Assembly: GCF_014197755.1 (NCBI RefSeq)
Contig: NZ_JACIGE010000009.1
Coordinates: 1 to 64,000, forward strand
Reading direction: 5' to 3'
From: Rhodocyclus tenuis
GTDB taxonomy: Bacteria > Pseudomonadota > Gammaproteobacteria > Burkholderiales > Rhodocyclaceae
DNA length: 64,000 bases
The position numbers were made by a program, and so were the translations under genes. Below the pieces are notes generated by a model. That model was not told the origin of the DNA. It searched no databases and worked only from the letters and a program-made list of their open reading frames with translations. Positions 38,419-61,885 of this stretch are shown piece by piece (the stretch's first letter is position 1; each line of letters starts with the position of its first letter).

Positions 38419-38425
38419 GTTAGAC
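38419..38425 (+). other. Possible cassette-insertion core (GTTAGAC)
   Basis: GTTAGAC fits the integron core GTTRRRY and lies at the left edge of the first cassette. No paired RYYYAAC element is found upstream, so this is more like an attI or a secondary site than an attC. Confidence 0.45.
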
Positions 38426-38441
38426 ATTAGGACCAATAACA

Positions 38442-38642: not shown

Positions 38643-38678
38643 TCGCGATTTTCTTCAGACGGCTGTTCGCGCGTTGAT

Positions 38679-38774: not shown

Positions 38775-38804
38775 GTCATAGACAGATGACGTTGCGACTA
38801 GAGA

Positions 38805-39986: not shown

Positions 39987-39987
39987 C

Positions 39988-40053
39988 GCCCAACCCATAA
40001 TCCACCGGACATGCGCGAATAGCCGCGCAGGCCGGTGATTTCAACCGTTGAGC
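39988..40053 (+). repeat. attC recombination site of cassette 2
   Basis: The 66-base site opens with GCCCAAC and closes with GTTGAGC. CACCGG pairs with CCGGTG, and TGCGCG with CGCGCA around an AATAGC loop. Both core elements fit the attC consensus. It directly follows the cassette 2 stop codon. The following 200 bases to 40,261 hold no gene I can support. Confidence 0.87.
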
Positions 40054-41070: not shown

Positions 41071-41328
41071 TTACTGGTTGTCGAGCTGTGCACGAACCGC
41101 GCGCAGGCCAGCCTTGTTGATGCGGTAGGGCTGTCCGTTCTGCGAGGCGATCAGGCGCTTGCTGCGCAGCTTCTTGAAGACGGGCAGCGTGCAGTCCGCC
41201 AGCAGCAGGCCGTCGCGGGTGTAACAGTCGATCGAAGAGATGTGGCCAGCGGCATCGCGGCTGTGCACGATGCGACCGCCCTTGGCGAGGACGTGCAGCG
41301 TCCTCTGCTCAGGCTTTGAAATGTTCAT
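41071..41328 (-). CDS. yjhX: YjhX family protein
   Basis: This 85-residue protein matches the YjhX (UPF0386) family, starting [20 protein letters not shown], with a DNA-binding-like fold and [19 protein letters not shown]. In E. coli, YjhX has been described as a toxin with the YjhQ acetyltransferase as antitoxin; no partner gene is seen here. The start at 41328 agrees with family length. Confidence 0.86.
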
Positions 41329-41553
41329 TGTGGAGATTCTCAAGCAATCAAAATGCATGACAGGCGACTGACCCATAGGGTCGTCACCGATTCTTTGCAT
41401 AGCGATAACTGGCACACCGAAAAGCGCGGCAGTTATCGGATTGCGACAATCTCCAACATATCCAGGAAGCCTGTTTTGATTGAAAAGCTGGCGGCCTTGC
41501 ACCGGCCAGCGGAAGCAATTATAGCGCTGCGCGGCGTCTGGCTGGCTTGCTGC

Positions 41554-47251: not shown

Positions 47252-48022
47252 CTAGGCTTGCGTGGCGAAGGGCGCGAAGGCGTCCGGGTCGCCGGCGAAC
47301 AGGCGTTCGAGCAGGCGTTTTTCGCCGCGCGCGACGCCGTCGAGGAACTCGCTGGCGTCGTCGCCCATCCGGCGGAAGGCGGCGAAGCCGTGGGCGAGGA
47401 AGGCGTGCAGTTCGCCAAGCCCGGCCAGTTGCGCCGGTCCGGCCATCAGCTTCAACAGCGTCGACAGCAGGGACTTCCGTGCCAGATGCTCAAGGATGGC
47501 GCCGACTTCGCCGATCAGCGCGATCTGGCGCAGGCGTTCAGGGCGGCGGCCGACGGTGACGTAGGCGGCGACGTAACGGCCGACGTCGATTTCGCCGACG
47601 CGGCCCGGCGCCGTTGCGGGCGCTGCCGTGCGGCGCAGTTCGGCGATCATCGCCGCGTCGAGATCTTCGGAGAGGGCGTCGAGCTCGACCGCCAGCGCCA
47701 TCGCCTGCAGCGCCGATTCGGGCAGCATCGCCACCAGCATCGGCAGGATGCGTTCGACTTCCTCGTCGCGTTCGGAGAAGTCCTTCGGGCCGTAGAGGTC
47801 GTCGAGGAAAAAGCGCGACGCTTCGCCGAAGCGCTCGCTTGCGAGGAAATGCGCGTGGCTCTCGGCCAGCCGTGCCGCCTGCCAGGCGCGCAGGGCAAGG
47901 CGGTCGTCGCCCTCGGTGCTACCGGGCGGCGCGCGCCGGCGCAGTTCGGCAGCGGCCGACAGGTGTCGGCGCAACGCGGCGGCGAGCGCCTCCTTGCTTT
48001 CTTCTTCTGGCAGTTCGCTCAT
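47252..48022 (-). CDS. FFLEELY-type hypothetical protein
   Basis: A 256-residue all-helical soluble protein with RFFLDDLYGPKDFSERD near residue 70, the signature of a conserved group annotated as FFLEELY proteins. Function is unknown. The rest is Ala/Leu-rich, and the C-terminus ends in FAPFATQA. It is upstream of dctA on the same strand but separated by the dctA promoter region. Confidence 0.75.
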   Translation of the reverse strand: MSELPEEESKEALAAALRRHLSAAAELRRRAPPGSTEGDDRLALRAWQAARLAESHAHFLASERFGEASRFFLDDLYGPKDFSERDEEVERILPMLVAMLPESALQAMALAVELDALSEDLDAAMIAELRRTAAPATAPGRVGEIDVGRYVAAYVTVGRRPERLRQIALIGEVGAILEHLARKSLLSTLLKLMAGPAQLAGLGELHAFLAHGFAAFRRMGDDASEFLDGVARGEKRLLERLFAGDPDAFAPFATQA

Positions 48023-48215: not shown

Positions 48216-49670
48216 ATGAACACACCCGTCAGCCCGGATGTTGCCGCTGCGGCCGCTGACAGCGTTGCCGCCGCTGCGACGCTCGGCGAACGTTTCGCCC
48301 GCCTGCACGCGGCCTCGCGCGCCGATCCTTTCCCCGATCTTGCCGCGCGCGATCGCCGGCTGGCGCGGCTGGAAACGCTGCTCGCCGACCACGCCGAGGC
48401 GCTGGCCGACGCCGTCAGCCGCGATTTCGGCCATCGCTCGCCGGCCGAAACGCGGCTCGCCGAACTCTTTCCCAGCCGCGAGGCGATCCGTCAGGCGCGG
48501 CGCGAATTGCGCGGCTGGTTGCGGCCGCAGTCGCGCTCGACCTCGTTCTGGTTCCTGCCCGGCCGTTCGGAAGTGCGCTGGCAGCCGCTCGGCGCGGTCG
48601 GCATCATCGTGCCGTGGAATTACCCGATCTTTCTCGCCGTCGGTCCGCTGGTCGGCGCGCTCGCCGCCGGCAATCGCGCGCTGGTGAAGATGTCCGAATT
48701 CACGCCGGCGACGGCGCGGCTGTTCGCCGAGCTGATCGCCAAAAACTTCGCCGACGACGAAGTGGCGGTGGTTGAAGGCGACGCCAGCGTCGCCCAGGAA
48801 TTTTCGCAGCTGCCCTTCGATCACCTGCTGTTTACCGGCGCCACTTCGGTCGGCCGGCTGGTGATGCGCGCGGCAGCGGCCAACCTGACGCCGGTGACGC
48901 TCGAACTCGGTGGCAAGTCGCCGGCGATCATCGGCCCCGAAGCGAATTTCGCGCGCGCCGTCGAGCGCATCGTCGTCGGCAAGTGCCTCAACGCCGGGCA
49001 GACCTGCATCGCGCCCGACTACGTGCTGCTGCCGCAGGGGCGCGAGCAGGAGTTCGTCGAAGCGGCGCGGCAGGTGGTCGCGCGCTGTTACCCCGATCTG
49101 GCGACGACGCCCGACTACAGCAGCATCATCAACGAGCGGCACTACGCGCGGCTCACCGGCTACCTCGACGAAGCGCTGGTGCAGGGCGTCGAGGTGGTAC
49201 CGCTGGCGCCGGGTGTCGCCGCCGACCCGGCGCGTCGCCGCCTGCCGCCGGTGCTGCTGCTCAAGGTCGCCGACAGCATGCGCGTGATGCAGGACGAGAT
49301 CTTCGGGCCGATCCTGCCGCTGATTCCCTACCGCGATTTCGACGAGGCGATCGCTTTCGTCAATGCGCGGCCGCGGCCGCTGGCACTGTATCTCTTCGAT
49401 GCCGAGGGCGCGCGCGTCGAGCGTCTGCTCGAGCGCACCGTCGCCGGCGGCGTGACGATCAACGACACGCTGCTGCACATCGCGCAGGACGACCTGCCTT
49501 TCGGCGGCGTCGGGCCGAGTGGCATCGGTGCCTACCACGGCCGCGCCGGCTTCGAGACCTTCTCGCACCGCAAGTCGGTGTTCCGCCAGTCGGGCGTCAA
49601 TGGCGTCGGCCTGTTCAAGCCGCCTTACGGCAGACTTTTCGAGCGCCTGCTGGCGTTCCTGATGCGATGA
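48216..49670 (+). CDS. Coniferyl/fatty aldehyde dehydrogenase family protein
   Basis: A 484-residue NAD(P)-dependent aldehyde dehydrogenase of the coniferyl-aldehyde group. Motifs are GIIVPWNYPIFLAVGPLVG, LFTGATSVG, the catalytic Glu in LELGGKSP, the Cys in NAGQTCIAPD and QDEIFGPILP. The C-terminal FSHRKSVFRQ segment and overall length fit the group, which also includes enzymes for long-chain aldehydes. It overlaps the Tat gene by 4 bases. The start at 48216 has an AAAGGAG site. Confidence 0.88.
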   Translation: MNTPVSPDVAAAAADSVAAAATLGERFARLHAASRADPFPDLAARDRRLARLETLLADHAEALADAVSRDFGHRSPAETRLAELFPSREAIRQARRELRGWLRPQSRSTSFWFLPGRSEVRWQPLGAVGIIVPWNYPIFLAVGPLVGALAAGNRALVKMSEFTPATARLFAELIAKNFADDEVAVVEGDASVAQEFSQLPFDHLLFTGATSVGRLVMRAAAANLTPVTLELGGKSPAIIGPEANFARAVERIVVGKCLNAGQTCIAPDYVLLPQGREQEFVEAARQVVARCYPDLATTPDYSSIINERHYARLTGYLDEALVQGVEVVPLAPGVAADPARRRLPPVLLLKVADSMRVMQDEIFGPILPLIPYRDFDEAIAFVNARPRPLALYLFDAEGARVERLLERTVAGGVTINDTLLHIAQDDLPFGGVGPSGIGAYHGRAGFETFSHRKSVFRQSGVNGVGLFKPPYGRLFERLLAFLMR

Positions 49671-50182
49671 CTAAGGTGATGAAATTCTCTCGCCGACAGT
49701 TCCTCGCCGCCGGCACTGCCGGCAGCCTGCTCCTCGCCGTCAGCGGCTGGCTCAACGCCGCCGGCGCGCGCCGCTTCTCGGGTGAAGAGCGCGACATGCT
49801 CGCCGCCATCGTTCCCGCGATCCTCGAAGGCACTTTCCCGGACGATCCGGCGCAGCGCCGTGCACGCATCCAGCGCGTCGTCGACGGGCTCGAGCAGACG
49901 GTTGCCGGCCTGTCGCTGGCAACGCAGAAAGAGATCGGCGAACTGTTCGGCCTGCTCGTCGTCGCGCCGGGACGCTGGCTCATCGCCGGCGTCAGCCGGC
50001 CCTGGCGCGAGGCTTCGGTGGCCGAAGTGACGGGCTTCCTCGAATCTTGGCGCAACAGCCGCTTCGCCTTGCTGCAGGGCGCTTACGCCGCGTTGCACGA
50101 TCTGGTGTTCGGCGCGTGGTACGCGCAGACCGAAAGCTGGAGCGCCATCGGCTATCCCGGCCCGCCGGAGTTGTTCAAATGA
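49667..50182 (+). CDS. Tat-exported small subunit (gluconate dehydrogenase subunit 3-like)
   Basis: A 171-residue protein with a twin-arginine signal SRRQFLAAGTAG near residues 8-19, followed by a helical domain (FSGEERDMLAAIVPAILEGT). Such proteins carry flavoprotein partners to the periplasm by hitchhiking. It is coupled to the dehydrogenase (ATGA overlap) and to the GMC gene (overlap of 4 bases), so the three form one unit. Confidence 0.84.
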   Translation: MTKVMKFSRRQFLAAGTAGSLLLAVSGWLNAAGARRFSGEERDMLAAIVPAILEGTFPDDPAQRRARIQRVVDGLEQTVAGLSLATQKEIGELFGLLVVAPGRWLIAGVSRPWREASVAEVTGFLESWRNSRFALLQGAYAALHDLVFGAWYAQTESWSAIGYPGPPELFK

Positions 50183-51777
50183 AGGATCGCATACGCGCCG
50201 GACTCGCCGCCGGCTGGAAGCACGTCGACGCTTCGCTGCTCACCGCCTCGGCGACACACGAGTTCGATGTCGTGATCGTCGGCAGCGGCGCCGGCGGCGG
50301 TGTCACTGCCGACATTCTTTCCGCCGCTGGCCTGCGCGTTGCGCTGGTCGAAGAAGGACCCTTGCGCTCGTCGACCGATTTCCACATGCGCGAGGCCGAG
50401 GCGTATCCGTCGCTGTATCAGGAGTCGGCGGCGCGCAAGACCGCCGACAAGGCGATCAACATCATGCAGGGGCGTTGCGTCGGTGGCTCGACGACGGTGA
50501 ACTGGACCAGCAGTTTCCGCACGCCGCCGGCAGTACTCGACTTCTGGGCGCGCCAGTACGGGCTGTCGCCGCTCACCGGCGAGGCGCTGACACCGTGGTT
50601 TGCGGCGATGGAATTCAAGCTTTCGGTGCGCCCCTGGGAGACTTCGCCGAACGCCAACAACCAGACGCTCGCCCGTGGTGCGGGCAAGCTCGGCGTCGAT
50701 TTCGGACTGATCCGGCGCAACGTCAAGGGCTGCTGGAATCTCGGCTACTGCGGCATGGGCTGTCCGACCGACGCCAAGCAGTCGATGCTGCTCACCACCA
50801 TTCCGGCTGCGCTCGACCGCGGCGCCACGCTCTACTCGCGGCTGCGCGCCGAACGCCTGCTCTTTCGCGGCGAACGCGTCATCGCCCTCGACGCGGCGGC
50901 GCTCGGCGCCGACGGCATCCGTCCGTCGGGTCGGCGCCTGAGCTTGCGCGCGCGCCATTTCGTGCTGGCCGGCGGCGCCATCGGCAGCCCGGCGCTGCTG
51001 CTGGCGAGCGGCGTACCCGATCCCTACCGCCTGCTCGGCAAGCGCACCTTCCTGCATCCGACGGTGGTTTCGTCGGGGCTGATGCCTGAACCGGTCAACG
51101 GGTTCGCTGGCGCGCCGCAGTCTGTCTATTCCGATCATTTCCTGCAGCAGGGGCCGATCGACGGGCCGCTCGGCTTCAAGCTGGAAACGCCGCCGCTGCA
51201 TCCGGTCCTGTTCTCGACCACCTTGCAGGGCTTCGGCGAAAGCCATGCGCAGCTGATGCGCGACTTTACCAACGCGCACGCACTGATCGCGCTCTTGCGC
51301 GACGGTTTCCATCCGGAAAGCCGCGGTGGGCAGGTGCGTCTCGGTGATCACAACCTGCCGGTGCTCGATTACCTGCTCGGCGAGGTGTTTTGGGAAGGCG
51401 CGCGGCGGGCCTTGCTGGCGATGGCCGAAATCCAGTTTGCCGCCGGCGCGCGCTGGGTAACGCCGGTACATGAAATGAGCGCCGGCTATACCAGCTGGGC
51501 GGCGGCGAAGAAGGGTATTACGGAATTGCCCCTGAAACCGCTGCTTTGCCGTATCGTCAGTGCCCACGTCATGGGTGGTTGCGGCATGGCCGATGCACCG
51601 GTGCGCGGCACGGTCGATCATCGCGGTCGCCACTTCTGGCTGTCGAACCTGTCGGTGCACGACGGCTCGGTGTTCCCTACCAGCCTTGGCGTCAATCCGC
51701 AGCTGTCGATCTACGCGCTGGTTGCGCGCAACGCCAGCCTGCTCGCCGCAGACCTCGGCCGCGTTGCCGCCGGCTGA
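50179..51777 (+). CDS. GMC-family FAD oxidoreductase
   Basis: A 532-residue flavoenzyme with the FAD motif VIVGSGAGGGVTADIL near residue 33, the GMC motif GGSTTVNWTSS near 109 and the C-terminal catalytic-region SAHVMGGCGM, ending LGVNPQLSIYALVARNAS. It oxidises alcohols. It may accept long-chain fatty alcohols, given its lipid-gene neighbours, but this is inferred. The small Tat subunit suggests a periplasmic complex. Confidence 0.88.
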   Translation: MKDRIRAGLAAGWKHVDASLLTASATHEFDVVIVGSGAGGGVTADILSAAGLRVALVEEGPLRSSTDFHMREAEAYPSLYQESAARKTADKAINIMQGRCVGGSTTVNWTSSFRTPPAVLDFWARQYGLSPLTGEALTPWFAAMEFKLSVRPWETSPNANNQTLARGAGKLGVDFGLIRRNVKGCWNLGYCGMGCPTDAKQSMLLTTIPAALDRGATLYSRLRAERLLFRGERVIALDAAALGADGIRPSGRRLSLRARHFVLAGGAIGSPALLLASGVPDPYRLLGKRTFLHPTVVSSGLMPEPVNGFAGAPQSVYSDHFLQQGPIDGPLGFKLETPPLHPVLFSTTLQGFGESHAQLMRDFTNAHALIALLRDGFHPESRGGQVRLGDHNLPVLDYLLGEVFWEGARRALLAMAEIQFAAGARWVTPVHEMSAGYTSWAAAKKGITELPLKPLLCRIVSAHVMGGCGMADAPVRGTVDHRGRHFWLSNLSVHDGSVFPTSLGVNPQLSIYALVARNASLLAADLGRVAAG

Positions 51778-51819
51778 AGCTTCGTCGCCTCAACGTTTTC
51801 CTGAAGGGTTTTATCGGTA

Positions 51820-52740
51820 ATGCTTGCGATTGCGCTGTCGGTTCTTCTCGCGTTCGAGTGTTCGCTGTACGTTCTCGTTGCCCGTCATTTCTTCGACGCC
51901 TCGCCCATGCAATGCCTCGTCGCCGCGCTCGGCGGCGTACTCGGGCTGCGCGCCGGCATCAACGTCGTCACCTGGTCCTTCGCTTCGGCACTGCGCACGC
52001 CGTGGCCGGAACTCGGCTTCCTGCGCTTTGCGCGCATGCTGCTGATCGAGTACGCGGCTTTCGTCTTCTGCTTCGTTTTCCTGCTGCCCGGCGAGCGCTT
52101 CTGGCTCGGCCCCGACCGGCTGCGGCCGTCGCCGGATCGTCCACCGCTGTTGCTGGTGCATGGCTACGGCTGCTCGCGTGGCGCCTGGTGGTGGTTACGC
52201 CGCCGGCTGGAAGCAGCGGGCTGGGTGGTGGCGACGATCACTCTCGAGCCGGTCTATACCAGCATCGACAATTTCGTCGATCCCGTGGCAAAGCGCATCG
52301 AAGAGGTGTGCGCGGCGACCGGATCGGCGCGCGTCATCCTGATCGGGCACAGCATGGGCGGGCTGGTTTCGCGCGCCTATCTGCGCCGCTACGGCCCGCA
52401 GCGCGTGGCGCGGCTGCTGACGCTCGGGACGCCGCATCGCGGCAGCGCGCTGGCGCGCATCGGCTTCGGCCAGAACGGCCGGCAGATGGAGCCCGGCAGC
52501 GACTGGCTGCGCACGCTGGCGACGACGCCCCCCGGCGTCGACACCATCGTTCTCTACAGTCCGCACGACAACTACGTGATGCCGCAGGCGCTGCTCGAAC
52601 TGCCCGGTGTGCCACACCGGCGCATCGACGGCGTCGGCCACCTGTCGATGTTGTTTTCCTTGCGCGTCGCTTCGGCGCTGCAGGCAGCACTGCAGTTGCC
52701 GAGCAGTTCCAGCGCCGGCTGGAAGCTGCGCGGCCTCTGA
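51820..52740 (+). CDS. Membrane-anchored lipase/esterase, alpha/beta hydrolase
   Basis: A 306-residue protein. The first 85 residues hold two or three membrane segments. The hydrolase domain starts PPLLLVHGYGCSRGAWWW (near 107) with nucleophile box LIGHSMGGLVSRAY (near 171), and the His is in DGVGHLSMLF near 275. It resembles LipA/PGAP1-like triacylglycerol lipases. The start at 51820 follows the GMC gene by 42 bases, so it may be part of the same transcript. Confidence 0.83.
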   Translation: MLAIALSVLLAFECSLYVLVARHFFDASPMQCLVAALGGVLGLRAGINVVTWSFASALRTPWPELGFLRFARMLLIEYAAFVFCFVFLLPGERFWLGPDRLRPSPDRPPLLLVHGYGCSRGAWWWLRRRLEAAGWVVATITLEPVYTSIDNFVDPVAKRIEEVCAATGSARVILIGHSMGGLVSRAYLRRYGPQRVARLLTLGTPHRGSALARIGFGQNGRQMEPGSDWLRTLATTPPGVDTIVLYSPHDNYVMPQALLELPGVPHRRIDGVGHLSMLFSLRVASALQAALQLPSSSSAGWKLRGL

Positions 52741-52770
52741 GGCGGCCGCGCCTGCCTTGCTGCCGCTCGT

Positions 52771-54762
52771 TCAGAAGTATATGCCGCGCATCATCTGCGT
52801 GAAGGCGATCTGATCGGCCGAAGGCTTTTCTGCGGCATCGGCCGGGTGCTGGTGCCGCGCGGCAGACGAGTCGGGGAACATGCGGAAGCTGGTGTTCATG
52901 ATGATCTGCGCGACGCGCGGCATCAGCGAATGCAGCGTCGCACCGAAGATGCCGAGCCGCGTGGCGATGCGCACCGGCTTGTGCACGATGGCCTCGACCA
53001 CCAGATCGGCGGCTTCGTCGGGGCTCAGCGTCGGCACGTGATCGTAGAATCTGGTCGGCGCGATCATCGGCGTCTTCACCAGTGGCATGTTGATCGTCGT
53101 GAAGTGGATGCCACGGTCGGTGTATTCGGATGCGGCACAGCGCGTCCACGCGTCGAGCGCCGCCTTCGAGGCGACGTAGGCGGAAAAGCGTGGCGCGTTG
53201 GTCAGTACGCCGATCGACGAAATGTTGATCACCTGTCCGCGCCGCCGTTCGGCCATCGCCGGCAGCACGCCGAGCGTGATGCGCAGCGCGCCGAAGTAGT
53301 TGAGCTCCATCGTCCGCTCGAAGTCGTGGATGCGCTCGTAGGAATTCTCGATGCCGCGGCGGATCGAGCGGCCGGCGTTGTTGACCAGGATATCGACGGC
53401 GCCGTATTTCTCCTTGATCGTCTTGACCAGTTCCGCGCATTGCTCGGGGATGGTCAGGTCGACCACGTAGGCGTCGAGCTGCAGACCGGCGGCGGCGAAC
53501 TCCTGGCGCGTCTCTTCCAGTTGCTCGGCCTCGCGCGCGATGGTGATGGTGATCGCGCCGGCCTCGGCGAGCTTCTTCACCGTCGCCTTGCCGATGCCTG
53601 ACGAGCCGCCGGTGACGAGAACGACGCGACCTGCGACCTGGCCTTTCAGCGTGCGGTCGATGAACAGATCGGGGTCGAGGTGGCGTTCCCAGTAGTCCCA
53701 CAGGCACCAGGCGTAGCTTTCCAGCTGCGGTACGGAGATATTGGTGCTCGCCAGGACACGCCGCGTTTCGCGGCAGTCGAAACGCGTCGGGTAATTGATG
53801 AAATCGAAGACGCTGTCAGGCAGGCCGAGGTCCTTCATGATCGCGCTGCGGATGCGCTTCACCGGCGTCAGCGCCAGCAGCGCCTTGCGCATGTGCCGTG
53901 GGATGAAACTGAACAGCGCGGCGTTGACGCGCATCGTCATCTGCGGCGCGTGCGCGGCGCGGGCGATGGTGTTGAGCAGGTCGCCGACGCGCATCGGCGT
54001 CGGGTCGGTGAGGTGGAAGCAGCGCCCGTCCTCGCCCTTGGCGTGCGCGATGTGGTCCATCGCGGCGACGACGAAATCGACCGGTACGACGTTGATGCGC
54101 CCGCCTTCGATGCCGATCATCGGCATCCACGACGGCACCAGCTTGCGCATCTTCTGGATCAGCTTGAAGAAGTAGTAGGGACCGTCGATCTTGTCCATCT
54201 CGCCGCTGCGCGAGTCGCCGACGACGATGCCGGGACGGAAGATGCGCCAGGGAATGCCGCACTCGCGGCGGACGATGCCTTCCGAATCGTGCTTGGTGCG
54301 GAAGTAGGGGTTGTCGAGGCCTTCGGCTTCTTCGAACATGTCCTCGCGGAAGATGCCTTCGAACATGCCGGCGGCGGCGATCGAACTGACCAGATGGAAG
54401 TGTCTGGCAGCGATCGACTCGGCGAAACGGACGGTGTTGCGCGTGCCGTCGACGTTGGCGCGCTGCTGCACTTCGGCGCTGGCGGAAAGGTCGTAGATGG
54501 CGGCCAGATGGAAGAAGTGTTCGACCTTGCCCTTGAGCTTGTGCGCTGCCTTGGCGTCGATGCCGAGCAGCGCTTCGGTCAGGTCGCCGACCAGCGGAAT
54601 GACGCGCTTGGCGTCGACCTGCCAGTAGTCGATGAGGGCGGGAAAAGTCTCCTGTTCGCAGTCGCGGATGAGCAGATGGACGACGCTGCCCGGCCGCGCC
54701 AGCAGGCGCGCAACCAGCCGTTTGCCGATGAAACCGGTGCCGCCGGTGACAAAATAGTTCAT
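52771..54762 (-). CDS. Two-domain fatty acyl-CoA reductase-like protein
   Basis: A 663-residue protein with an N-terminal extended SDR (GGTGFIGKRL at residues 7-16; YFRTK catalytic pair) and a C-terminal classical SDR (GGSSGIGKA near 380, NNAGRS, NISSIGV, YVASKAALD). The architecture and length are those of the bacterial fatty acyl-CoA reductases that make fatty alcohols (Marinobacter type). A wax ester synthase and acyl-CoA-binding protein lie nearby. It is divergent from the phasin gene. No biochemical data support the substrate. Confidence 0.82.
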   Translation of the reverse strand: MNYFVTGGTGFIGKRLVARLLARPGSVVHLLIRDCEQETFPALIDYWQVDAKRVIPLVGDLTEALLGIDAKAAHKLKGKVEHFFHLAAIYDLSASAEVQQRANVDGTRNTVRFAESIAARHFHLVSSIAAAGMFEGIFREDMFEEAEGLDNPYFRTKHDSEGIVRRECGIPWRIFRPGIVVGDSRSGEMDKIDGPYYFFKLIQKMRKLVPSWMPMIGIEGGRINVVPVDFVVAAMDHIAHAKGEDGRCFHLTDPTPMRVGDLLNTIARAAHAPQMTMRVNAALFSFIPRHMRKALLALTPVKRIRSAIMKDLGLPDSVFDFINYPTRFDCRETRRVLASTNISVPQLESYAWCLWDYWERHLDPDLFIDRTLKGQVAGRVVLVTGGSSGIGKATVKKLAEAGAITITIAREAEQLEETRQEFAAAGLQLDAYVVDLTIPEQCAELVKTIKEKYGAVDILVNNAGRSIRRGIENSYERIHDFERTMELNYFGALRITLGVLPAMAERRRGQVINISSIGVLTNAPRFSAYVASKAALDAWTRCAASEYTDRGIHFTTINMPLVKTPMIAPTRFYDHVPTLSPDEAADLVVEAIVHKPVRIATRLGIFGATLHSLMPRVAQIIMNTSFRMFPDSSAARHQHPADAAEKPSADQIAFTQMMRGIYF

Positions 54763-54934
54763 GCCTTCCTCCTTGTGCTTGTCTTTTCTGGCGGATGCCG
54801 CCGGATGGTCGGATCACCGCTTCTCTTTAGTATGCTTACTCTAGGCATTTTCACTACAGTGGCATCGTGCGGCAAGAGAAATGCGCCCGAGCGGCGCACT
54901 TCACCATCATCAAGCGAATTTTCAGGAGAAGATC

Positions 54935-55519
54935 ATGGGCAAGAAACTCAAAGCACTGACTGCCGGTGTGAACGAAACGCAACTGGCGACCACCGTCAAG
55001 GAATCGGCACATCAGATCTGGCTGGCTGGGCTGGGCGCTTTCGCCAAGGCGCAGGAGGAGGGTGGCAAGGTTTTCGACGCGCTGGTCAAGGAAGGCGAAG
55101 TGATCCAGGCGCGGACGCGCAAGATCACCGAAGAGAAGATCGCTGAAGTCGCCGGCAAGACCGCCGGCACCTGGGATCGTCTGGAACATGTGTTCGAGGA
55201 TCGCGTCGCGCGTGCGCTCGGCAGCCTCGGCGTGCCGACCAAGAAGGACATCGACAAGCTGGCCAGGCGCGTTGCCGAACTGACCGCCGTGGTGCAGGAA
55301 CTCAGCGAGCAGACCGCCAAGGTGCCGGCCAAGGCAGCAGCGAAACCGGCGGCAAAGCCGGCCGCGAAGCCCGCTGCGAAGGCCGCTGAACCCGTCGCGG
55401 CAGCGCCTGCCGCAGCGCCCGCTCCGGTGAAGAAGGCAGCAGCGCGCAAGCCGGCGGCCAAGGCACCGGCGGTGACGCCGGCCGATGTGCTCAATACCAT
55501 CGTCAAGAGCAACGCCTGA
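54935..55519 (+). CDS. Phasin, PhaF/PhaI-like, with histone H1-like tail
   Basis: A 194-residue granule-associated protein. An amphipathic helical phasin domain (about residues 15-110, IWLAGLGAFAKAQEEGGKVF) is followed by an AAKPAAKPAAK-type lysine-alanine-proline tail (about 130-180). PhaF proteins coat polymer granules and bind DNA through such tails to distribute granules at division. The clear start has an AGGAG site. It sits between acyl-CoA reductase and patatin genes, so it may coat lipid droplets as well as PHA. Confidence 0.87.
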   Translation: MGKKLKALTAGVNETQLATTVKESAHQIWLAGLGAFAKAQEEGGKVFDALVKEGEVIQARTRKITEEKIAEVAGKTAGTWDRLEHVFEDRVARALGSLGVPTKKDIDKLARRVAELTAVVQELSEQTAKVPAKAAAKPAAKPAAKPAAKAAEPVAAAPAAAPAPVKKAAARKPAAKAPAVTPADVLNTIVKSNA

Positions 55520-55621
55520 AGCGCGCAGACTTTCCGGTGACGACGCCTGACGTCGTCACCGGGATGCACTCGCCGGCAGCGGCTGGCGTTTGCCGCTGAT
55601 GTTTTTTCAAGGGGTCATTCG

Positions 55622-56854
55622 ATGAGTCCTGCACGGCGGCGTTCGCGTCCGGTCATTGGTCTGGCGCTGGCCGGCGGTGGGCCGGTCGGCGGCATTTATG
55701 AAGTTGGCGCGCTGGCGGCGCTCGACGAGGCGCTCGACGGCGCCGATCTGAGTGATCTCGACATCTACGTCGGCGTCAGTTCCGGCGCCTTCGTCGCCGC
55801 CATGCTGGCCAACGGCCTGCGTCCGGCGAAGCTGGCGCGCATGCTCATGGAGAACGACGCCGACGAGGTGTTCGATCCGGACATCCTGCTGCGTCCGGCC
55901 TTCGGCGAGTACGGCAAGCGCCTGCGCCGGGTGCCGCCGCTGTTCTGGTCTTCCTTGCTGCGCTATCTCTCCGATCCGCTGCATGCCGGCCTGTTCGAGT
56001 CCTTCCAGCGCATGAGCCGCGCCTTGCCGGCGGGAATTTTCGACAGCGCCGGCATCGACGCGCTGCTCTGCCGGCTGTTCAGCGGCGATGGGCGCACCAA
56101 CGATTTCCGTCAGCTGCGCAAGAAGCTCTTTCTCGTCGCCACCGATCTTGAGTCGGGCGCGTCGGTGGCTTTCGGCGGCCCCGGCCGCGACAGCACGCCG
56201 ATATCGACTGCCGTGCAGGCGAGTGCGGCGCTGCCGGGGCTTTTCCCGCCGGTCGAGATCGACGGCAATTTCTATGTCGACGGCGCGCTGATCAAGACAT
56301 TGCACGCCTCGGTCGCGCTGCGCGAGGGGGCCGATCTGGTGCTGTGCATCAACCCGCTGGTGCCTTTCGATTCGGGTCTGGCGGCACAGAAGCCGCGGGC
56401 GGCAACGCCCGACGACACGCCGCCACGGCTGGTCGACGGCGGCTTGCCGGCGGTGCTGTCGCAGACTTTTCGCGCCATCATCCGCTCGCGCATGCAGGTC
56501 GGTATGGGCCGTTACCAGCGCGAGTTCGAGAACGCCGATGTGGTGCTGTTCGAGCCGGCCGCCGACGATGCCGAGATGTTCTTCACCAATGTCTTCAGCT
56601 ACGGTAGCCGGCGCAGCGTCTGCGAACACGCCTATCAGCGCACGCGCAGCGAGTTGTACCGGCGCCGCGAGGAACTGGCGCCAATCCTGGCCCGCCACGG
56701 CATCCGCCTGAATCTGGCCTTGCTGCGCGATCGCCGCTGTTCGCTGCTGCCGGATTCGCGTAACGGTCGTCTGGCGACGCTCACCGACTCGCTCGAGCAT
56801 TCGCTCGACGAACTCGCGCACTGTCTGCAACTGCGCGCGGACAAGGCGGCCTGA
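55622..56854 (+). CDS. Patatin-like phospholipase
   Basis: A 410-residue lipid acyl hydrolase. The oxyanion motif is GLALAGGGPVGGIYEVGAL near residue 13, the nucleophile GVSSGAF near 57, and the catalytic Asp in NFYVDGALI near 219. The C-terminal half is mostly charged helices. It could release fatty acids from membranes or storage lipid. The start is just downstream of a terminator-like region after the phasin. Confidence 0.87.
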   Translation: MSPARRRSRPVIGLALAGGGPVGGIYEVGALAALDEALDGADLSDLDIYVGVSSGAFVAAMLANGLRPAKLARMLMENDADEVFDPDILLRPAFGEYGKRLRRVPPLFWSSLLRYLSDPLHAGLFESFQRMSRALPAGIFDSAGIDALLCRLFSGDGRTNDFRQLRKKLFLVATDLESGASVAFGGPGRDSTPISTAVQASAALPGLFPPVEIDGNFYVDGALIKTLHASVALREGADLVLCINPLVPFDSGLAAQKPRAATPDDTPPRLVDGGLPAVLSQTFRAIIRSRMQVGMGRYQREFENADVVLFEPAADDAEMFFTNVFSYGSRRSVCEHAYQRTRSELYRRREELAPILARHGIRLNLALLRDRRCSLLPDSRNGRLATLTDSLEHSLDELAHCLQLRADKAA

Positions 56855-57003
56855 GGCCCGCGGCGTTCCGGGCGAGCTTTTCTCCGCGCTGATGCCGGCG
56901 TTGCCTGACAGCTCACCGGCATTTTTCGACTTGTTCCGGGCGTGCCCGATGATGCTATGCTCATCGCTGGAGACAACCACGACCGGATAACCGGCAGACG
57001 CTG

Positions 57004-57654
57004 ATGGAACGCAAACCCCCGCGGCGCACGCGCGAGCGAATTCTCGAAACGAGCCTTCGCCTGTTCAACGATTTCGGCGAACCGAACGTCACGACGACGG
57101 TGATCGCCGACGAGATGAACATCAGTCCGGGCAATCTCTACTACCACTTCCACAGCAAGGGCGAGATCGTCGAGGCGATCTTTGCCGTCTTCGAGCGCGA
57201 GATCGAGGCCACGCTGGCGGCGCCGACGCGGCGTTCGGCGACGGTCGACGACATCTGGCTGTTCCTGCATCTGCTCTTCGAGCACATCTGGAAGTACCGC
57301 TTCTTCTATCGCGATCTCAATGATCTGCTGACGCGCAACCGCACGCTGGAAATCCACTTCAAGCAGATCCTCGCGCACAAGGTGCGCACGGCGACGGCCT
57401 TGTGCGAGGGCCTCGTCAGCAGCGGCGCGATGCGCGCCAGCTCGGCCGAGTTGCGCGCGCTGGCGATCAACATGACGGTTATCGCGTCGTGGTGGCTGTC
57501 TTTCGAGTACGCGCGCGACCCGCGCGGCGGCGACGAAAGCGAGCGCATCGGTCGCGGCGTTTTCCAGTCGATGGCGATGCTCTCGCCTTTCCTGCTCGGC
57601 GATTCGCGCGCGTTGTTCGAACGCCTCGCCGCCGAATACTTGAAAAGCCCGTGA
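57004..57654 (+). CDS. TetR-family transcriptional regulator
   Basis: A 216-residue repressor with an N-terminal helix-turn-helix (RERILETSLRLFNDFGEPNV and ISPGNLYYHFHSKGEIVEAI) and a divergent ligand-binding domain. Such regulators in lipid loci often respond to acyl-CoAs. GATGA and TCATC half-sites spaced by 8 bases lie at 56948-56965 ahead of the gene and could be its operator. It probably governs patatin, TPR and other lipid genes. Confidence 0.87.
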   Translation: MERKPPRRTRERILETSLRLFNDFGEPNVTTTVIADEMNISPGNLYYHFHSKGEIVEAIFAVFEREIEATLAAPTRRSATVDDIWLFLHLLFEHIWKYRFFYRDLNDLLTRNRTLEIHFKQILAHKVRTATALCEGLVSSGAMRASSAELRALAINMTVIASWWLSFEYARDPRGGDESERIGRGVFQSMAMLSPFLLGDSRALFERLAAEYLKSP

Positions 57655-57714
57655 ACGGGTTCTGATCGCAGTGCCGCAACGCGCCTCGCCGGCGCGCAGA
57701 CAAGGAGGAAGCGC

Positions 57715-58491
57715 ATGCCCTGGAAGAAATTTCCCCATCCCGACAAGGCTTACGTCCATGCCGGCGAGTCGCTGAAGAAACACTGGGCGCGCCTGCATCG
57801 CGGCGACGCCGAGCCTTTCCCCGGCGACGCCGCGGTGCAGGAGGCTTGGCGCGCCTTTCATGCTGGCGATTTCGCGCGCGCCGTCGAACTCGGGCTGGCC
57901 GCCGGCGGCGCCGGTCTGGTTGCCGCGAACAAGGCGGCGATCATCTACGCCACGTATCTGGAGAGTGACGACGAGAAAAAGCTCGCGCTGTTCCTCGAAG
58001 TCGCGAAGCGCTGCGAGACGCTGCAGCTAGAAACGCCCGACTGTGCCAACGTCTGGTATCAGCACGCCAATGCGCTCGGGCGTTACAGCCAGGGCATCTC
58101 GGTGAGCAAGGCGCTGGCGCAGGGGCTGGGCGGCAAGATCCGGCGCAGCCTCGACCGCGCCGTCGAGATCGAGCCGAAGCACGCCGACGCGCATATCGCA
58201 TTGGGAACTTACCACGCCGAGGTGATCGACAAGGTGGGTGCGCTGGTCGGCGGCCTGACCTACGGCGCACGCAAGGATGCCGGCGTCGAACACTTCGAGA
58301 CGGCCTTGCGCCTGAACCCGGATTCGGCGATCGCGCGTGTCGAGTTCGCCAACGCGCTGGCGATGATGTACGGGCGTTCGCGCCTCAAGGACGCCGAGCG
58401 TCTTTACGCCGAAGCGGCGGCGTGCGTGCCGGTCGATGCGATGGAGCGGCTCGACGTCGAACTGGCGCGCGCCGAGCTCGCCGACGACTGA
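57715..58491 (+). CDS. TPR-repeat hypothetical protein
   Basis: A 258-residue helical protein. TPR-like repeats are seen near residues 130-225 (SLDRAVEIEPKHADAHIALG, then HFETALRLNPDSAIARVEFA). There is no signal peptide. The N-terminal MPWKKFPHPDKAYVHAGESL is not recognised. It lies 60 bases after the TetR gene in the same direction and may assemble a lipid-body complex; that is a guess. Confidence 0.72.
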   Translation: MPWKKFPHPDKAYVHAGESLKKHWARLHRGDAEPFPGDAAVQEAWRAFHAGDFARAVELGLAAGGAGLVAANKAAIIYATYLESDDEKKLALFLEVAKRCETLQLETPDCANVWYQHANALGRYSQGISVSKALAQGLGGKIRRSLDRAVEIEPKHADAHIALGTYHAEVIDKVGALVGGLTYGARKDAGVEHFETALRLNPDSAIARVEFANALAMMYGRSRLKDAERLYAEAAACVPVDAMERLDVELARAELADD

Positions 58492-58507
58492 GTTCGTCGC
58501 CAGCCGT

Positions 58508-60184
58508 TCAGACAGCTGGCCGACGGCGGCGCGCTCTGGCAGGCGCGCCGGTTTCTTTTGCGACGGGCAGCGCGGCGTCTTTGGCGTCGTCCGCCTTGCC
58601 GGCCGGCCGCGCTCTTGCCTTCGGTTTTTTCGTCGCGGCCACTGCGGCCGGTCTGGCTGCAGTGGCCGCGCTTTCCTCTGTCGCCGAGGAACGGCGCTGG
58701 CTCTCGCTGGCCGCCGCCTGCAGCGCTTCCTCGACCGCCTGTGGCTGGTCGAGTCGCTCCCAGGGTTCCATCAGCACCAGCCAGAGCAGCTTCTCGAACT
58801 CGACGGCGAAGCGTTCGACGATTTTTTCCGGGTCGGGGACCATTCCCTGATCGGTGATCAGCCCGAGCTGCACCTTGCCGTCGTAGGACAGGATGCTCAG
58901 CCCCATGCCGATGTCGCCCGACTGCGGCACCCAGAACATCTGTTGCGCGATGCGCGAGCCGGCCAGATAGCGCGCCTGCTGCGGCCCGGGGACGTTGGTC
59001 ATCACCGCCGTCGCTTTGTTGGCGAGCAGGTCGAGCACCTTCTGCTGCAGGAACTTCGGCACCATGCCGACGACGCCGAGGATCGAGAAGGTGAGCGCCG
59101 CCTGATACGACTCCTTCAGCGCTTCCATGCGTTGCCGGGTGACGTAGAGCCGCGCCAGCGGGTTTTCGATGCCAAGCGAGTGTTCAAGGGCAACGAGGCC
59201 GAAGCGGTTGCCGAGCTCGCCGATGTCGCCGGGCGGGCGCAGGTTGACCGGCACCAGCGCGCGGATTTCCGTGTCGGGCGCGAGTTCGCCGTGCTCGGCA
59301 AGATAGCGGCACAAGGCGCCCGCCGCCGAAGAGAGCAGCAGGTCGTTGATCGAACAGCCGAGCACTTTGCTCACCGCCTTCATCTCGGGCAGGGGAATCG
59401 GCTCCGACCACGCAACGCATTTGGCGGTGCCCGGCCGCCCCTTGAAGCGCGTCGGCGTGTCGTTGGGCATCAGCGCCAGCTTGGCGATTTCCTGGGTAAA
59501 CGAGGCGACGATGCGCGCGTAGTCGAAGGCGCGCGTCGGCGACAGCAGCATTTCGAAGTACTTGCTCCACAGGCTGCTGCCAATGCGGATCGAAGCCAGC
59601 GTCGCCTCGTTGATCGGCTCGTACAGGTGGCGCCAGAAGACGTCGTTTTCGTGCCAGTCGTCGTCTGCGCTGGCGGCGAGCGTCAGCCCGGCGATCTCTT
59701 CGTCGTCGGCGGCGTCTTCGGCCGCGGCGTCGGCATCGGTGAGCGAGGTGATGACGCCGACCAGCGCGATGCCGTCGGCAATGGCGTGATGGATGCGCAC
59801 GACCATCGCCGAATTGCCGTCGGCCAGTTCGACCAGATTGAATTCCCAGCGCGGCCTTGCCGGATTGAGCGGGTTGGCGATCAGTTCGCTGACGAATTGC
59901 TGCAGTTCGGCCTTGCCGGCCGGTGCCGGCAGCAGCGAACGGCGCAGGTGCGCGTCGAGCGAGAAAGCCGGATCGTCGACCCACCAGGCGCCGTTATCTT
60001 CAACGACGGCGATCTGGCGGAAACGCCGGTAACGCAGCAGACGGTGCGCGACAACACGGCGCAGCCGGGCGAAATCGAGCTTGCCGTCGAACACCATGAC
60101 GCCGACGATCTGCATCAGGTTCACCGGCCGGTCCATGCGCAACCATGCCGTATCGACGTGCGACATGCGTTCGCGATGGCTCAT
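58508..60184 (-). CDS. Wax ester synthase/diacylglycerol acyltransferase
   Basis: A 558-residue WS/DGAT that joins acyl-CoA to fatty alcohol or diacylglycerol. It opens MSHVDTAWLRMD after six residues, has the catalytic HHAIADG at 132-138 and the C-terminal MTNVPGP and GMGLSILSYDGKVQL segments. The last 75 residues are an unusual Ala/Lys/Arg-rich tail (AATKKPKARARPAGKADD), resembling the H1-like tail of the phasin. The start at 60184 fits the family. It is divergent from the acyl-CoA-binding gene. Confidence 0.9.
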   Translation of the reverse strand: MSHRERMSHVDTAWLRMDRPVNLMQIVGVMVFDGKLDFARLRRVVAHRLLRYRRFRQIAVVEDNGAWWVDDPAFSLDAHLRRSLLPAPAGKAELQQFVSELIANPLNPARPRWEFNLVELADGNSAMVVRIHHAIADGIALVGVITSLTDADAAAEDAADDEEIAGLTLAASADDDWHENDVFWRHLYEPINEATLASIRIGSSLWSKYFEMLLSPTRAFDYARIVASFTQEIAKLALMPNDTPTRFKGRPGTAKCVAWSEPIPLPEMKAVSKVLGCSINDLLLSSAAGALCRYLAEHGELAPDTEIRALVPVNLRPPGDIGELGNRFGLVALEHSLGIENPLARLYVTRQRMEALKESYQAALTFSILGVVGMVPKFLQQKVLDLLANKATAVMTNVPGPQQARYLAGSRIAQQMFWVPQSGDIGMGLSILSYDGKVQLGLITDQGMVPDPEKIVERFAVEFEKLLWLVLMEPWERLDQPQAVEEALQAAASESQRRSSATEESAATAARPAAVAATKKPKARARPAGKADDAKDAALPVAKETGAPARARRRRPAV

Positions 60185-60275
60185 CGAAGCGGCTCCCGGC
60201 GGTGGATGACGTGCCCATATAATAGCAAGCACCGTCGACCGGCGGTAAGACCGGAATTCCACAGGAGGAAATGCA

Positions 60276-60533
60276 ATGAGCGATCTGCAATCGCGCTTCG
60301 AGGCCGCCGTCGCTGGCTCGAAGACCCTCAATGAGCGCCCGGAGAACAGCGTCCTGCTCAAGCTCTATGCGCTGTACAAGCAGGCAACGGAGGGCGATGT
60401 CGCCGGGCGCCGTCCCGGTTTCACCGACATGGTCGGTCGCGCCAAGTTCGACGCCTGGGATGCGCTCAAGGGAACGGCCAGCGATGAAGCCAAGCAGCGC
60501 TACATCGCGCTGGTCGAATCGCTGCGCGTCTAG
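60276..60533 (+). CDS. Acyl-CoA-binding protein (ACBP)
   Basis: An 85-residue four-helix ACBP: LKLYALYKQATEGDV and GRAKFDAWDALKG are the acyl-CoA-binding signatures. Length is standard, so the protein is complete despite an IS element starting 2 bases after its stop. It would deliver long-chain acyl-CoA to the wax synthase next door. A clear AGGAGG site is seen. Confidence 0.93.
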   Translation: MSDLQSRFEAAVAGSKTLNERPENSVLLKLYALYKQATEGDVAGRRPGFTDMVGRAKFDAWDALKGTASDEAKQRYIALVESLRV

Positions 60534-61477
60534 GTGTGTAAACCCGCCACGTTGTTCAGCGCATTGACTCGGGAGATAGGCGGCAGATATTGAAGACTGG
60601 CATGAGGCCTGTGCCAGTTGTAATGGTGCAGCCAGAGCGGCAGATGCTGGGCGCGGTGATCAGACGACTCGTAGCGGCGCGCATAGGCCCATTCCCGTAA
60701 GGCGGTCTGGATGAAGCGCTCGGCCTTGCCGTTGGTTTGTGGGGTGTAGGGCTTGGTGCGCAGGTGGCGCAAACCCAGTCGCTGGCAAAGCCGGGCGAAG
60801 CGGCGGGATTTGTAGCAGGCGCCGTTATCGGTCAGGACTCGCTGGAAGGTTACGCCCAGCTGGCGATAGTGACGCAAGGCCGAGAGCAAGGCTTGGCAAG
60901 CACTGCGACCGCTTTCATCCGGCTGGATGTCGGCAAAGGCGACTCTCGAATGATCGTCGAGTGCGACATGGACGAATTCCCAACCCGCGCGGCGGGAGTT
61001 CTGTGTGCGGTCGGCCGTGACCCGATGTCCTGGCCGTTGGAAACGTCCCAGCTTCTTGATGTCCAGATGGAGCATGTCGCCCGGCTCGGGGTGCTCGTAG
61101 CGGACAATGGGATTTGCCGGTTCGAGAGCGGCCAGGCGGTTGAGGCCAGCACGTTGAAGCCAGCGGGCGATGGTGCTCTGGCCGATCCCGCATTGCTGGC
61201 TCATCTGGCGATACGTCTGGCGGCTGCGCCGCTGTGCGATCACTTGCACATGAACAGCTGCTGGCAAGGCGTGCGGGCAGGATTTCGGGCGGGACGAGCG
61301 ATCGTTGAGTCCGGCTTCCCCCTCTTCGCGGAAGCGCCGTAGCCATTTGTAGGCCGTGCGGACGCTCACCCCGCAGGCTTGTGCGGCTTCCTCGGGACGC
61401 AGCCCATCATCGAGTATCCGACTGACCAGCAGGGCTCGACCGCGCGGCGTTAATCGGGCATTTTTATGGACGTTCAT
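60530..61477 (-). CDS. IS481-family transposase
   Basis: A 315-residue transposase. The N-terminal helix-turn-helix (GLRPEEAAQACGVSVRTAYK) is followed by a DDE core with HLDIKKLGRF, LTDNGACYKS and PQTNGKAERF. Its stop codon (60530-60532, TAG on the minus strand) lies outside the element, in the CTAG target, which is shared with the stop of the ACBP gene. The start at 61477 gives MNVHKNARLTPRGR. Confidence 0.9.
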   Translation of the reverse strand: MNVHKNARLTPRGRALLVSRILDDGLRPEEAAQACGVSVRTAYKWLRRFREEGEAGLNDRSSRPKSCPHALPAAVHVQVIAQRRSRQTYRQMSQQCGIGQSTIARWLQRAGLNRLAALEPANPIVRYEHPEPGDMLHLDIKKLGRFQRPGHRVTADRTQNSRRAGWEFVHVALDDHSRVAFADIQPDESGRSACQALLSALRHYRQLGVTFQRVLTDNGACYKSRRFARLCQRLGLRHLRTKPYTPQTNGKAERFIQTALREWAYARRYESSDHRAQHLPLWLHHYNWHRPHASLQYLPPISRVNALNNVAGLHT

Positions 61478-61560
61478 TCGGGGCCTCGGAGGCTTGTTTG
61501 GTTGGCGCCTCCAATTCTCCGGGGAGAACCCCCGAGTGAACAACCTACAGAGAGATCACA
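60535..61560 (-). mobile_element. IS481-family insertion sequence
   Basis: The 1,026-base element is bounded by TGTG at 60535 and CACA at 61560, with imperfect terminal repeats (TGTG-N10-A, then GTTGTTCA on both ends). The left flank is TCTAGG, matching the NCTAGN target known for IS481. The right flank reads GCTGGG, so a clean duplication is not seen. The transposase fills the element. Confidence 0.82.
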
Positions 61561-61606
61561 GCTGGGCGGCAAGCGTCGCCGCGCAAGGGGCGCGGCGGCA
61601 GTGCAC

Positions 61607-61885
61607 TCAGGCCGGGAAATTCTCGTCGAAGAAGCGGTGCGCTTCGCGTTCGATCATCGGTTTCAGTGCCGAGAGCAGGAAGCCGAGACGGATGTTGAGT
61701 TCGGCTTCTGTGTCATCCAGCCTGAGATCGCCGGAGACGCCGGAGCGGGTAAAGCGCAGGCAGTCGTCGTCCCACTCGTAGGCGAGGTCGAATTCTTCTT
61801 GCAGTTCGCGCGCCAGGCGCTCGGCCGAGGCGCGCGCGGCGGCGTGGGTCTGGCCGTGGCGACGGCGGATGCTGATTTCACTCAT
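61607..61885 (-). CDS. Polyhydroxyalkanoic acid system family protein
   Basis: A 92-residue protein matching the PHA_gran_rgn family (TIGR02610-like): MSEISIRRRHGQTHAAARAS, RFTRSGVSGDLRLDD and LGFLLSALKPMI. It is linked by family to PHA or granule genes, but its exact role is unknown. It starts 9 bases after rsgA and ends the operon, 46 bases before the IS. Confidence 0.87.
   Translation of the reverse strand: MSEISIRRRHGQTHAAARASAERLARELQEEFDLAYEWDDDCLRFTRSGVSGDLRLDDTEAELNIRLGFLLSALKPMIEREAHRFFDENFPA

What the first reader, a model, noticed from the sequence alone, without database searches (positions are those of the whole stretch)
48216..61885. A neutral-lipid metabolism region in a diazotroph
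Wax ester synthase/DGAT, a fatty acyl-CoA reductase-like protein, ACBP, phasin, patatin, lipase, aldehyde dehydrogenase and a TetR regulator lie within about 13 kb. Together they can make fatty alcohol, condense it with acyl-CoA, store it in coated droplets and degrade it. A PHA-system protein lies just beyond.
Basis: partly seen in the sequence, partly recalled or inferred. Interest (0 to 1): 0.65.

Follow-up and report, generated by a model that had tools for sequence, protein, structure and literature searches.

The report
Conserved bacterial wax-ester storage gene cluster

Summary
All named genes are present and uninterrupted; a GMC oxidoreductase and a TPR-like protein were overlooked. 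The "reductase-like" protein is a two-domain fatty acyl-CoA reductase (FAR); the acyltransferase exceeds the curated WS/DGAT cut-off and keeps HHxxxDG.

The grouping is not chance. Among 80 FAR relatives, FAR and phasin are divergent in 77 of 77 loci where both were found; of 62 loci with enough flank, 56 keep patatin, 54 TetR, 50 TPR, 37 WS/DGAT; 23 of the 25 without a local WS/DGAT have one elsewhere. In the family, 21 of 22 FAR genomes have WS/DGAT, against 9 of 128 others; in the class, 10 of 12 against 12 of 357, though there only this genome has the two within 10 kb. The oxidase/aldehyde dehydrogenase side is accessory. The host carries nifH, nifV, bchL, bchX: a phototrophic diazotroph, probably Rhodocyclus (inferred).

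Best reading: a locus for wax-ester synthesis and turnover with a phasin coat. Product, coating and regulation are untested. Galvan et al. 2023 already reported WS/DGAT, ACBP, FAR-like and PHA genes together on betaproteobacterial scaffolds, so this is a better-defined member of a known kind.

The parts
47252..48022 (-). FFLEELY-motif protein (NF047641), unknown function; neighbour of the accessory module
   Evidence: NCBIfam 219.5 bits, cut-off 55; in the downstream flank of 27 of 64 loci
48216..49670 (+). aldehyde dehydrogenase (fatty aldehyde oxidation proposed); accessory
   Evidence: PF00171; GQTC and ELGGK; 13 of 64 loci
50179..51777 (+).
   Evidence: PF00732 1.3e-46, PF05199 6.6e-18; 23 of 64 loci
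51820..52740 (+). alpha/beta-hydrolase, lipase-like (GHSMGG); accessory
   Evidence: PF00561 4.8e-14; GHS[ML]GG here but in only 15 of 34 relatives; 30 of 64 loci
52771..54762 (-). two-domain fatty acyl-CoA reductase (FAR), Maqu_2507 type
   Evidence: PRK07201 992 bits, residues 1-662; PF07993 + PF00106; TGxxGFIG, YxxxK, TGGSSGIG, YVASK
54763..54934 (.). FAR/phasin intergenic region with the conserved element TAGAGNNNGCAYACTAA (54827-54843, minus strand)
   Evidence: single match in the own genome at up to one mismatch
54935..55519 (+). phasin (PF05597); the ORF opens at 54881, but the ATG at 54935 matches relatives
   Evidence: PF05597 1.5e-37; only PF05597 match in the genome; divergent from FAR in 77 of 77 loci with both
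55622..56854 (+). patatin-like phospholipase/lipase (GVSSG, DGA)
   Evidence: PF01734 1.5e-28; GxSxG in 69 of 70 and DG[AG] in 68 of 70 relatives; 56 of 62 loci
57004..57654 (+). TetR-family regulator with PF13972 domain
   Evidence: 54 of 62 loci; best solved chain 3nnr
57715..58491 (+). TPR-like protein, unknown role
   Evidence: weak TPR matches; no NCBIfam match; 50 of 62 loci
58508..60184 (-). wax ester synthase/DGAT (HHAIADG); the only one in the genome
   Evidence: TIGR02946 372 bits, cut-off 310; single PF03007 match in the genome; best solved chains 7nxg and 6chj; start chosen
60276..60533 (+). acyl-CoA-binding protein
   Evidence: PF00887 1.2e-27; solved ACBPs from 1.7e-17; 33 of 62 loci
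60530..61543 (-). IS481-family transposase between ACBP and the PHA_gran_rgn gene; not part of the pathway
   Evidence: PF13011 and rve_3; ACBP and PHA_gran_rgn matches are 7-119 bp apart in 21 of 26 relatives with both
61607..61885 (-). putative polyhydroxyalkanoic acid system protein (PHA_gran_rgn)
   Evidence: PF09650 1.8e-25; TIGR02610; 32 of 62 loci

Best explanation
A dedicated wax-ester synthesis and turnover locus. The FAR reduces fatty acyl-CoA (or acyl-ACP) with NADPH to fatty alcohol; WS/DGAT joins the alcohol to a second acyl-CoA, delivered by the ACBP, giving wax ester (and possibly some TAG); the divergently transcribed phasin coats the resulting granule; the patatin and the alpha/beta-hydrolase reopen the ester; in this genome the GMC oxidoreductase and aldehyde dehydrogenase return freed alcohol to fatty acid. 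The TetR protein senses an acyl ligand and controls the FAR/phasin divergent promoter. Shown here: the genes, their family assignments, catalytic motifs, conserved order, FAR/WS co-occurrence and a conserved element between FAR and phasin. Inferred: all activities, the product, the coating and the regulation.
For: Family assignments above curated cut-offs. FAR and WS/DGAT co-occur: 21 of 22 FAR genomes have WS/DGAT against 9 of 128 without FAR in 150 genomes of the family (Fisher p = 1.3e-17); 10 of 12 against 12 of 357 in 369 genomes of the class (p = 3.5e-12). By the coordinates, the two lie within 10 kb in 13 of the 22. Of 25 FAR loci without a WS/DGAT in the fetched flank, 23 genomes have one elsewhere. 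FAR and phasin are divergent in 77 of 77 loci with both, 74 of them with matches under 350 bp apart. The conserved element has 7 matches in 6 genomes that carry it, 6 of them at this locus (one search places against ranges). Betaproteobacterial SDR proteins beside ws/dgat and ACBP are reported as about 59% identical to MAQU_2507 (PMC10351704, passages), which makes fatty alcohol from acyl-CoA/ACP (PMC7744569, passages).
Against: No biochemical or lipid data for any member of this locus. WS/DGAT is not near the FAR in 25 of 62 loci, and two of those genomes have none at all (G532, G538); G077, G160 and G359 also have FAR without WS/DGAT. In the class sample the two genes are within 10 kb only in this genome, 1 of 12 (coordinates), so physical linkage is mainly a feature of this family and near relatives. 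The WS/DGAT scores 119 bits against Pfam, where many others in the family score 150-251, so its substrate may differ. Phasin and PHA_gran_rgn are PHA-associated by name, and the genome has three PhaC matches. The two other genomes of the genus lack the FAR. The lipase motif GHS[ML]GG is in only 15 of 34 relatives.
Confidence: 0.72

Rival explanations
1. The acyltransferase makes mainly TAG or other acyl esters from diacylglycerol, and the FAR serves a separate need for fatty alcohol or aldehyde.
For: WS/DGAT enzymes are commonly bifunctional (established knowledge). The FAR-linked WS/DGAT is a distinct type: a profile built from such proteins (circular in part, duplicates included) gives at least 600 bits on 52 rows, under 200 on 16 (one or more of them fragments) and between on 3. 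In the class sample FAR and WS/DGAT are not neighbours except here.
Against: FAR and WS/DGAT co-occur tightly even when unlinked, as expected if FAR supplies the WS substrate.
Confidence: 0.13
2. The locus belongs to PHA metabolism: phasin, patatin, TetR and PHA_gran_rgn manage PHA granules, and the FAR/WS enzymes handle acyl-CoA overflow.
For: Phasin PF05597 and PHA_gran_rgn names; three PhaC matches in the genome; many carriers are Accumulibacter MAGs and two are Competibacteraceae, named as PHA storers in PMC9003127 (passage).
Against: No PHA synthase or thiolase among the cluster genes (a thiolase lies far off at 18289-19476); the PhaC matches lie on other contigs and two PF09361 phasins over the cut-off lie elsewhere; the most constant neighbour of this phasin, in loci found through FAR, is FAR.
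Confidence: 0.1
3. A catabolic locus for environmental wax esters or long-chain alcohols, with FAR and WS/DGAT as a secondary sink.
For: GMC oxidoreductase, aldehyde dehydrogenase and lipase lie together, a layout that recalls the LaoABCR alcohol-oxidation system (recalled; seen only in passages of other papers).
Against: The oxidation module is the least conserved part (GMC 23, ALDH 13 of 64), while FAR, phasin and patatin occur without it, for example in Accumulibacter loci L031, L032, L036.
Confidence: 0.04
4. Chance clustering of unrelated lipid genes.
For: None beyond the lack of experiments.
Against: Conserved order over many genera.
Confidence: 0.01

Closest known systems
Marinobacter wax-ester system (FAR Maqu_2507, WS/DGAT)
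   Same: Same two-domain FAR layout and WS/DGAT family
   Different: Here FAR and WS/DGAT share a locus with phasin, patatin, TetR and ACBP; that the Marinobacter genes are dispersed is recalled, not checked
Betaproteobacterial ws/dgat scaffolds of Galvan et al. 2023 (PMC10351704)
   Same: ws/dgat next to ACBP, SDR about 59% identical to MAQU_2507 and a PHA-system protein on two scaffolds, phasin on another (passages)
   Different: The words patatin and TetR do not occur in its main text (figures and supplements not seen). The fixed FAR-phasin-patatin-TetR-TPR order, genome-wide co-occurrence and conserved element are shown here
Acinetobacter Acr1 and WSD/AtfA
   Same: WSD family; the best solved match is 7nxg, 'O-acyltransferase WSD' (its organism is recalled)
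   Different: Acr1 is listed as aldehyde-forming (PMC7744569 table); the FAR here has an added N-terminal PF07993 domain
Mycobacterial FCR1 (Rv3391)
   Same: Two-part FAR; its deletion lowered fatty alcohol and wax ester; 40% identical to MAQU_2507 (PMC3522743, abstract and passages)
   Different: Not compared here by sequence or neighbourhood
LaoABCR long-chain alcohol oxidation
   Same: Recalled: GMC dehydrogenase, aldehyde dehydrogenase and TetR regulator together; LaoA/LaoB are subunits of an alcohol dehydrogenase (PMC13291428, passages)
   Different: No LaoB-like gene was looked for and no Lao sequence was at hand, so kinship is not tested

Membership tests
WS/DGAT (TIGR02946/PF03007) | Score above curated cut-off over both domains | tested here: met
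   TIGR02946 372.2 vs 309.95 bits; PF03007 115.9 vs 23.6; PF06974 126.9 vs 20.7
WS/DGAT (TIGR02946/PF03007) | HHxxxDG acyltransferase motif | tested here: met
   HHAIADG in the window protein; 40 of 42 relatives
WS/DGAT (TIGR02946/PF03007) | Wax ester or TAG synthesis activity | not testable with these tools
   needs an assay
Alcohol-forming FAR, Maqu_2507 type | PF07993-type N-terminal plus SDR C-terminal domain in about 660 aa | tested here: met
   PF07993 at 5-235, PF00106 at 379-569, 663 aa; PRK07201 over residues 1-662
Alcohol-forming FAR, Maqu_2507 type | Nucleotide-binding and YxxxK motifs in both domains | tested here: met
   TGGTGFIG, Y153..K157, TGGSSGIG, Y529..K533 in the window protein; T6 G7 G10 F11 I12 G13 and these Tyr/Lys columns at least 98% conserved in 81 rows. 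The regex TGG[TA]GF[IL]G as typed matched 0 of 80 relatives because position 8 varies
Alcohol-forming FAR, Maqu_2507 type | Direct similarity to Maqu_2507 | not tested
   sequence not fetched; rests on published identity of homologues
Alcohol-forming FAR, Maqu_2507 type | Acyl-CoA to alcohol activity | not testable with these tools
   needs an assay
Phasin (PF05597) | Family profile above cut-off | tested here: met
   128.9 vs 28.8 bits; TIGR01837 95.8 vs 94.7
Phasin (PF05597) | Granule surface localisation | not testable with these tools
   needs microscopy or proteomics
LaoABCR | LaoA/LaoB orthology | not tested
   no Lao sequences at hand; a plasmid search with the GMC protein gave only matches under 60% identity

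The most novel reading that the evidence does not exclude
FAR, phasin, patatin and TetR form a widespread wax-ester organelle module with its own phasin coat in bacteria known as PHA, polyphosphate or glycogen storers (Accumulibacter, Competibacteraceae) and in a purple phototroph, where wax esters serve as a second, more reduced store and NADPH sink during anaerobic or light-driven carbon excess.
Probability: 0.15. Interest if true: 0.7.

Novelty: new member of a known kind. Interest (0 to 1): 0.4.

Why it matters
If true, organisms described mainly as PHA accumulators, including uncultured bacteria of enhanced phosphorus removal, would have an overlooked reduced-carbon store, and lipid budgets and redox models of them would need a wax-ester term. 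It would also give a natural case of a phasin coating non-PHA inclusions, testable by deleting single genes in a culturable relative.

Tried and rejected
A C-terminal Ala/Lys/Pro-rich tail on the WS/DGAT resembling the phasin tail looked like a tether, but it is not conserved: median 31.5 residues and net charge -1 over 52 linked-type rows, many ending without it. Rejected.

The conserved FAR/phasin element as the TetR operator: loci with the GCACACTAAA core at up to 1 mismatch have TetR proteins more like the window's (mean 69% identity, 34 loci) than those without (58%, 31 loci), but both may track phylogeny, so this is no proof; the one inverted repeat reported in the window's FAR/phasin region (54878-54902) does not overlap the element. 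Left open. The core occurs with up to 2 mismatches in 51 of 81 upstream regions, so 30 lack it. The 9-mer counts printed are doubled by the script. In one search the 11-base core with up to 2 mismatches has 5 matches in the window, fewer than chance expects (10.5), but only the one at 54825 is exact.

Promoter and terminator scans were uninformative. A plasmid-record search with the GMC protein found 139 records, all under 60% identity.

Errors corrected: the WS/DGAT and SDF queries were cut in the wrong frame; one search mended the coordinates, and WS/DGAT counts use only. Overlap filtering in the printed lines hides some ORFs; one search counts without it. Dropped before counting: 18 of 80 loci with under 9 kb upstream, 16 of 80 with under 7 kb downstream.

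The '1 TGA' in the second nifH match is the natural end of the gene. No structure was predicted; sequence evidence sufficed.
Full report
What is there. The region 48.2-61.9 kb holds, in order: aldehyde dehydrogenase (+), GMC oxidoreductase (+), lipase-like hydrolase (+), fatty acyl-CoA reductase (-), phasin (+), patatin (+), TetR regulator (+), TPR-like protein (+), WS/DGAT (-), ACBP (+), IS481-family transposase (-) and PHA_gran_rgn protein (-). The frames have no internal stops and key motifs are kept: HHAIADG in WS/DGAT; TGGTGFIG/YxxxK and TGGSSGIG/YVASK in the two FAR domains; GVSSG in patatin; GHSMGG in the hydrolase; GQTC in the aldehyde dehydrogenase. In relatives HH...DG is in 40 of 42 WS/DGATs, GxSxG in 69 of 70 patatins, but GHS[ML]GG in only 15 of 34 lipases, NVPGP in 35 of 42 and G[SA]GAGG in 14 of 27 GMC proteins. 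The probable phasin start is 54935: the start-like 9-mers ATGGTCAAG and ATGGGCAAG occur in about 37 and 16 of 81 upstream regions (printed counts halved).

The FAR. The 663-residue protein matches NCBIfam PRK07201 over residues 1-662 (992 bits, cut-off 549), with a PF07993 N-terminal and a PF00106 C-terminal domain. In the 60 shown of 435 solved chains, each best stretch covers one domain only. Galvan et al. 2023 (PMC10351704; abstract and passages read) report betaproteobacterial SDR proteins on scaffolds with ws/dgat and ACBP as about 59% identical to MAQU_2507. A review lists Maqu_2507 as forming fatty alcohol from acyl-CoA/ACP (PMC7744569, passages). I did not align with Maqu_2507 itself.

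Conservation of the locus. Of 62 loci with at least 9 kb upstream: phasin 59, patatin 56, TetR 54, TPR 50, WS/DGAT 37, ACBP 33, PHA_gran_rgn 32; 30 have phasin, patatin, TetR, TPR and WS/DGAT all together. Of 64 with at least 7 kb downstream: lipase 30, FFLEELY protein 27, GMC 23, aldehyde dehydrogenase 13. FAR and phasin are divergent in all 77 loci where tblastn found both, 74 with match edges under 350 bp apart, three 2.3-3.0 kb apart. Of the 25 loci without WS/DGAT in the fetched upstream flank, 23 genomes have one elsewhere; G532 (L088) and G538 (L100) do not (how complete those genomes are is not told, and some copies may lie just beyond the flank). The sample was drawn by similarity to this FAR and is not phylogenetically balanced.

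Co-occurrence. In 150 genomes of the family (this one included), FAR (E <= 1e-60) is in 22 and WS/DGAT in 30, both in 21; the FAR genome without WS/DGAT is G077 (85% complete); G014 counts as FAR on a partial match (residues 374-646). Fisher p = 1.3e-17. In 369 genomes of the class, FAR (E <= 1e-100) is in 12 and WS/DGAT in 22 (21 over the cut-off), both in 10; G160 and G359 have FAR only (p = 3.5e-12). These p-values ignore shared ancestry. By coordinates the two genes lie within 10 kb in 13 of the 22 family genomes with FAR, but in the class sample only in this genome (1 of 12); so linkage is mainly a feature of this family and near relatives, while co-occurrence reaches further.

Own genome. 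One WS/DGAT, one PF05597 phasin, the one here, three PhaC_N matches on other contigs, two PF09361 phasins over the cut-off and a third below it. PHA synthesis is thus probably present but separate. nifH (C13, 468.9 bits; C1, 459.2 bits), nifV in the window, bchL on C19 and bchX on C12 mark a phototrophic diazotroph; the genus Rhodocyclus is my inference from these and from relatives named. The two other genomes held of the genus lack FAR and WS/DGAT, so the locus is patchy, by loss or gain.

Regulatory element. Between FAR and phasin a composite sequence CAGTcTAG...cTAGAGga.GCACACTAAag recurs; the 10-base core is found with up to 2 mismatches in 51 of 81 upstream regions, this window included. 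In six whole genomes chosen because they carry it, TAGAGNNNGCAYACTAA with up to one mismatch has 7 matches, 6 of them by coordinates at the FAR/phasin locus; the backwards control has 1. So where present it is nearly unique to this locus; whether TetR binds it is open.

The IS element. An IS481-family transposase lies between ACBP and PHA_gran_rgn; the matches to these are 7-119 bp apart in 21 of 26 relatives with both, 205 and 309 bp in two and over 1 kb in three. ACBP still reads to 85 residues and matches solved ACBPs. Clear terminal repeats were not established.

Prior work. Open-access full-text searches: phasin + wax ester (29 papers, 15 listed), fatty acyl-CoA reductase + wax ester synthase + phasin (1), Accumulibacter + wax ester (1, a reference-list mention), Accumulibacter + triacylglycerol (5, listing only), Rhodocyclus + wax ester (0), Rhodocyclaceae + wax ester (3; one opened), a four-term betaproteobacterial query (0), a five-term gene-cluster query (1, on yeast). 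In these I saw no report of wax esters in Rhodocyclus or Accumulibacter; subscription papers are mostly not held. A Zoogloea genome paper says the gene for TAG or wax ester formation was not predicted there (PMC5648520, passages). Galvan et al. is the closest precedent and limits novelty.

Verdict. It is a well-defined member of a known kind. The constant FAR-phasin pairing is its most distinctive part. On checking I added the class-sample linkage result and the weaker motif counts; the odds stay as first written, since co-occurrence, not linkage, carries the argument there.

Noticed in passing
own genome: L121 (C19), L122 (C12), L123 (C1), L124 (C13): bchL, bchX and two nifH genes; the ORF after the C1 nifH looks like an alternative (iron-only) nitrogenase subunit by eye (recalled, not searched).
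   Followed up: partly
window 22885-23031 (-): Cobalamin riboswitch (RF00174, 69.1 bits) at the 5' end of the anaerobic ribonucleotide reductase ORF 20612-23020 (-), whose called start it overlaps.
   Followed up: no
window 38001-40000: GC drops to 0.508 against about 0.65 around it; the ORF 38805-39986 has no Pfam match at 0.001: possible recent acquisition.
   Followed up: no
window 41071-41502 (-) and 32439-33704 (-): YjhX-like putative toxin-family protein (PF09857) and a HipA_C protein (PF07804).
   Followed up: no
window 47252-48022 (-): FFLEELY-motif protein of unknown function keeps company with the GMC/lipase module in relatives (27 of 64 loci).
   Followed up: partly
window 57715-58491 (+): TPR-like protein of unknown role, kept in 50 of 62 loci.
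   Followed up: partly
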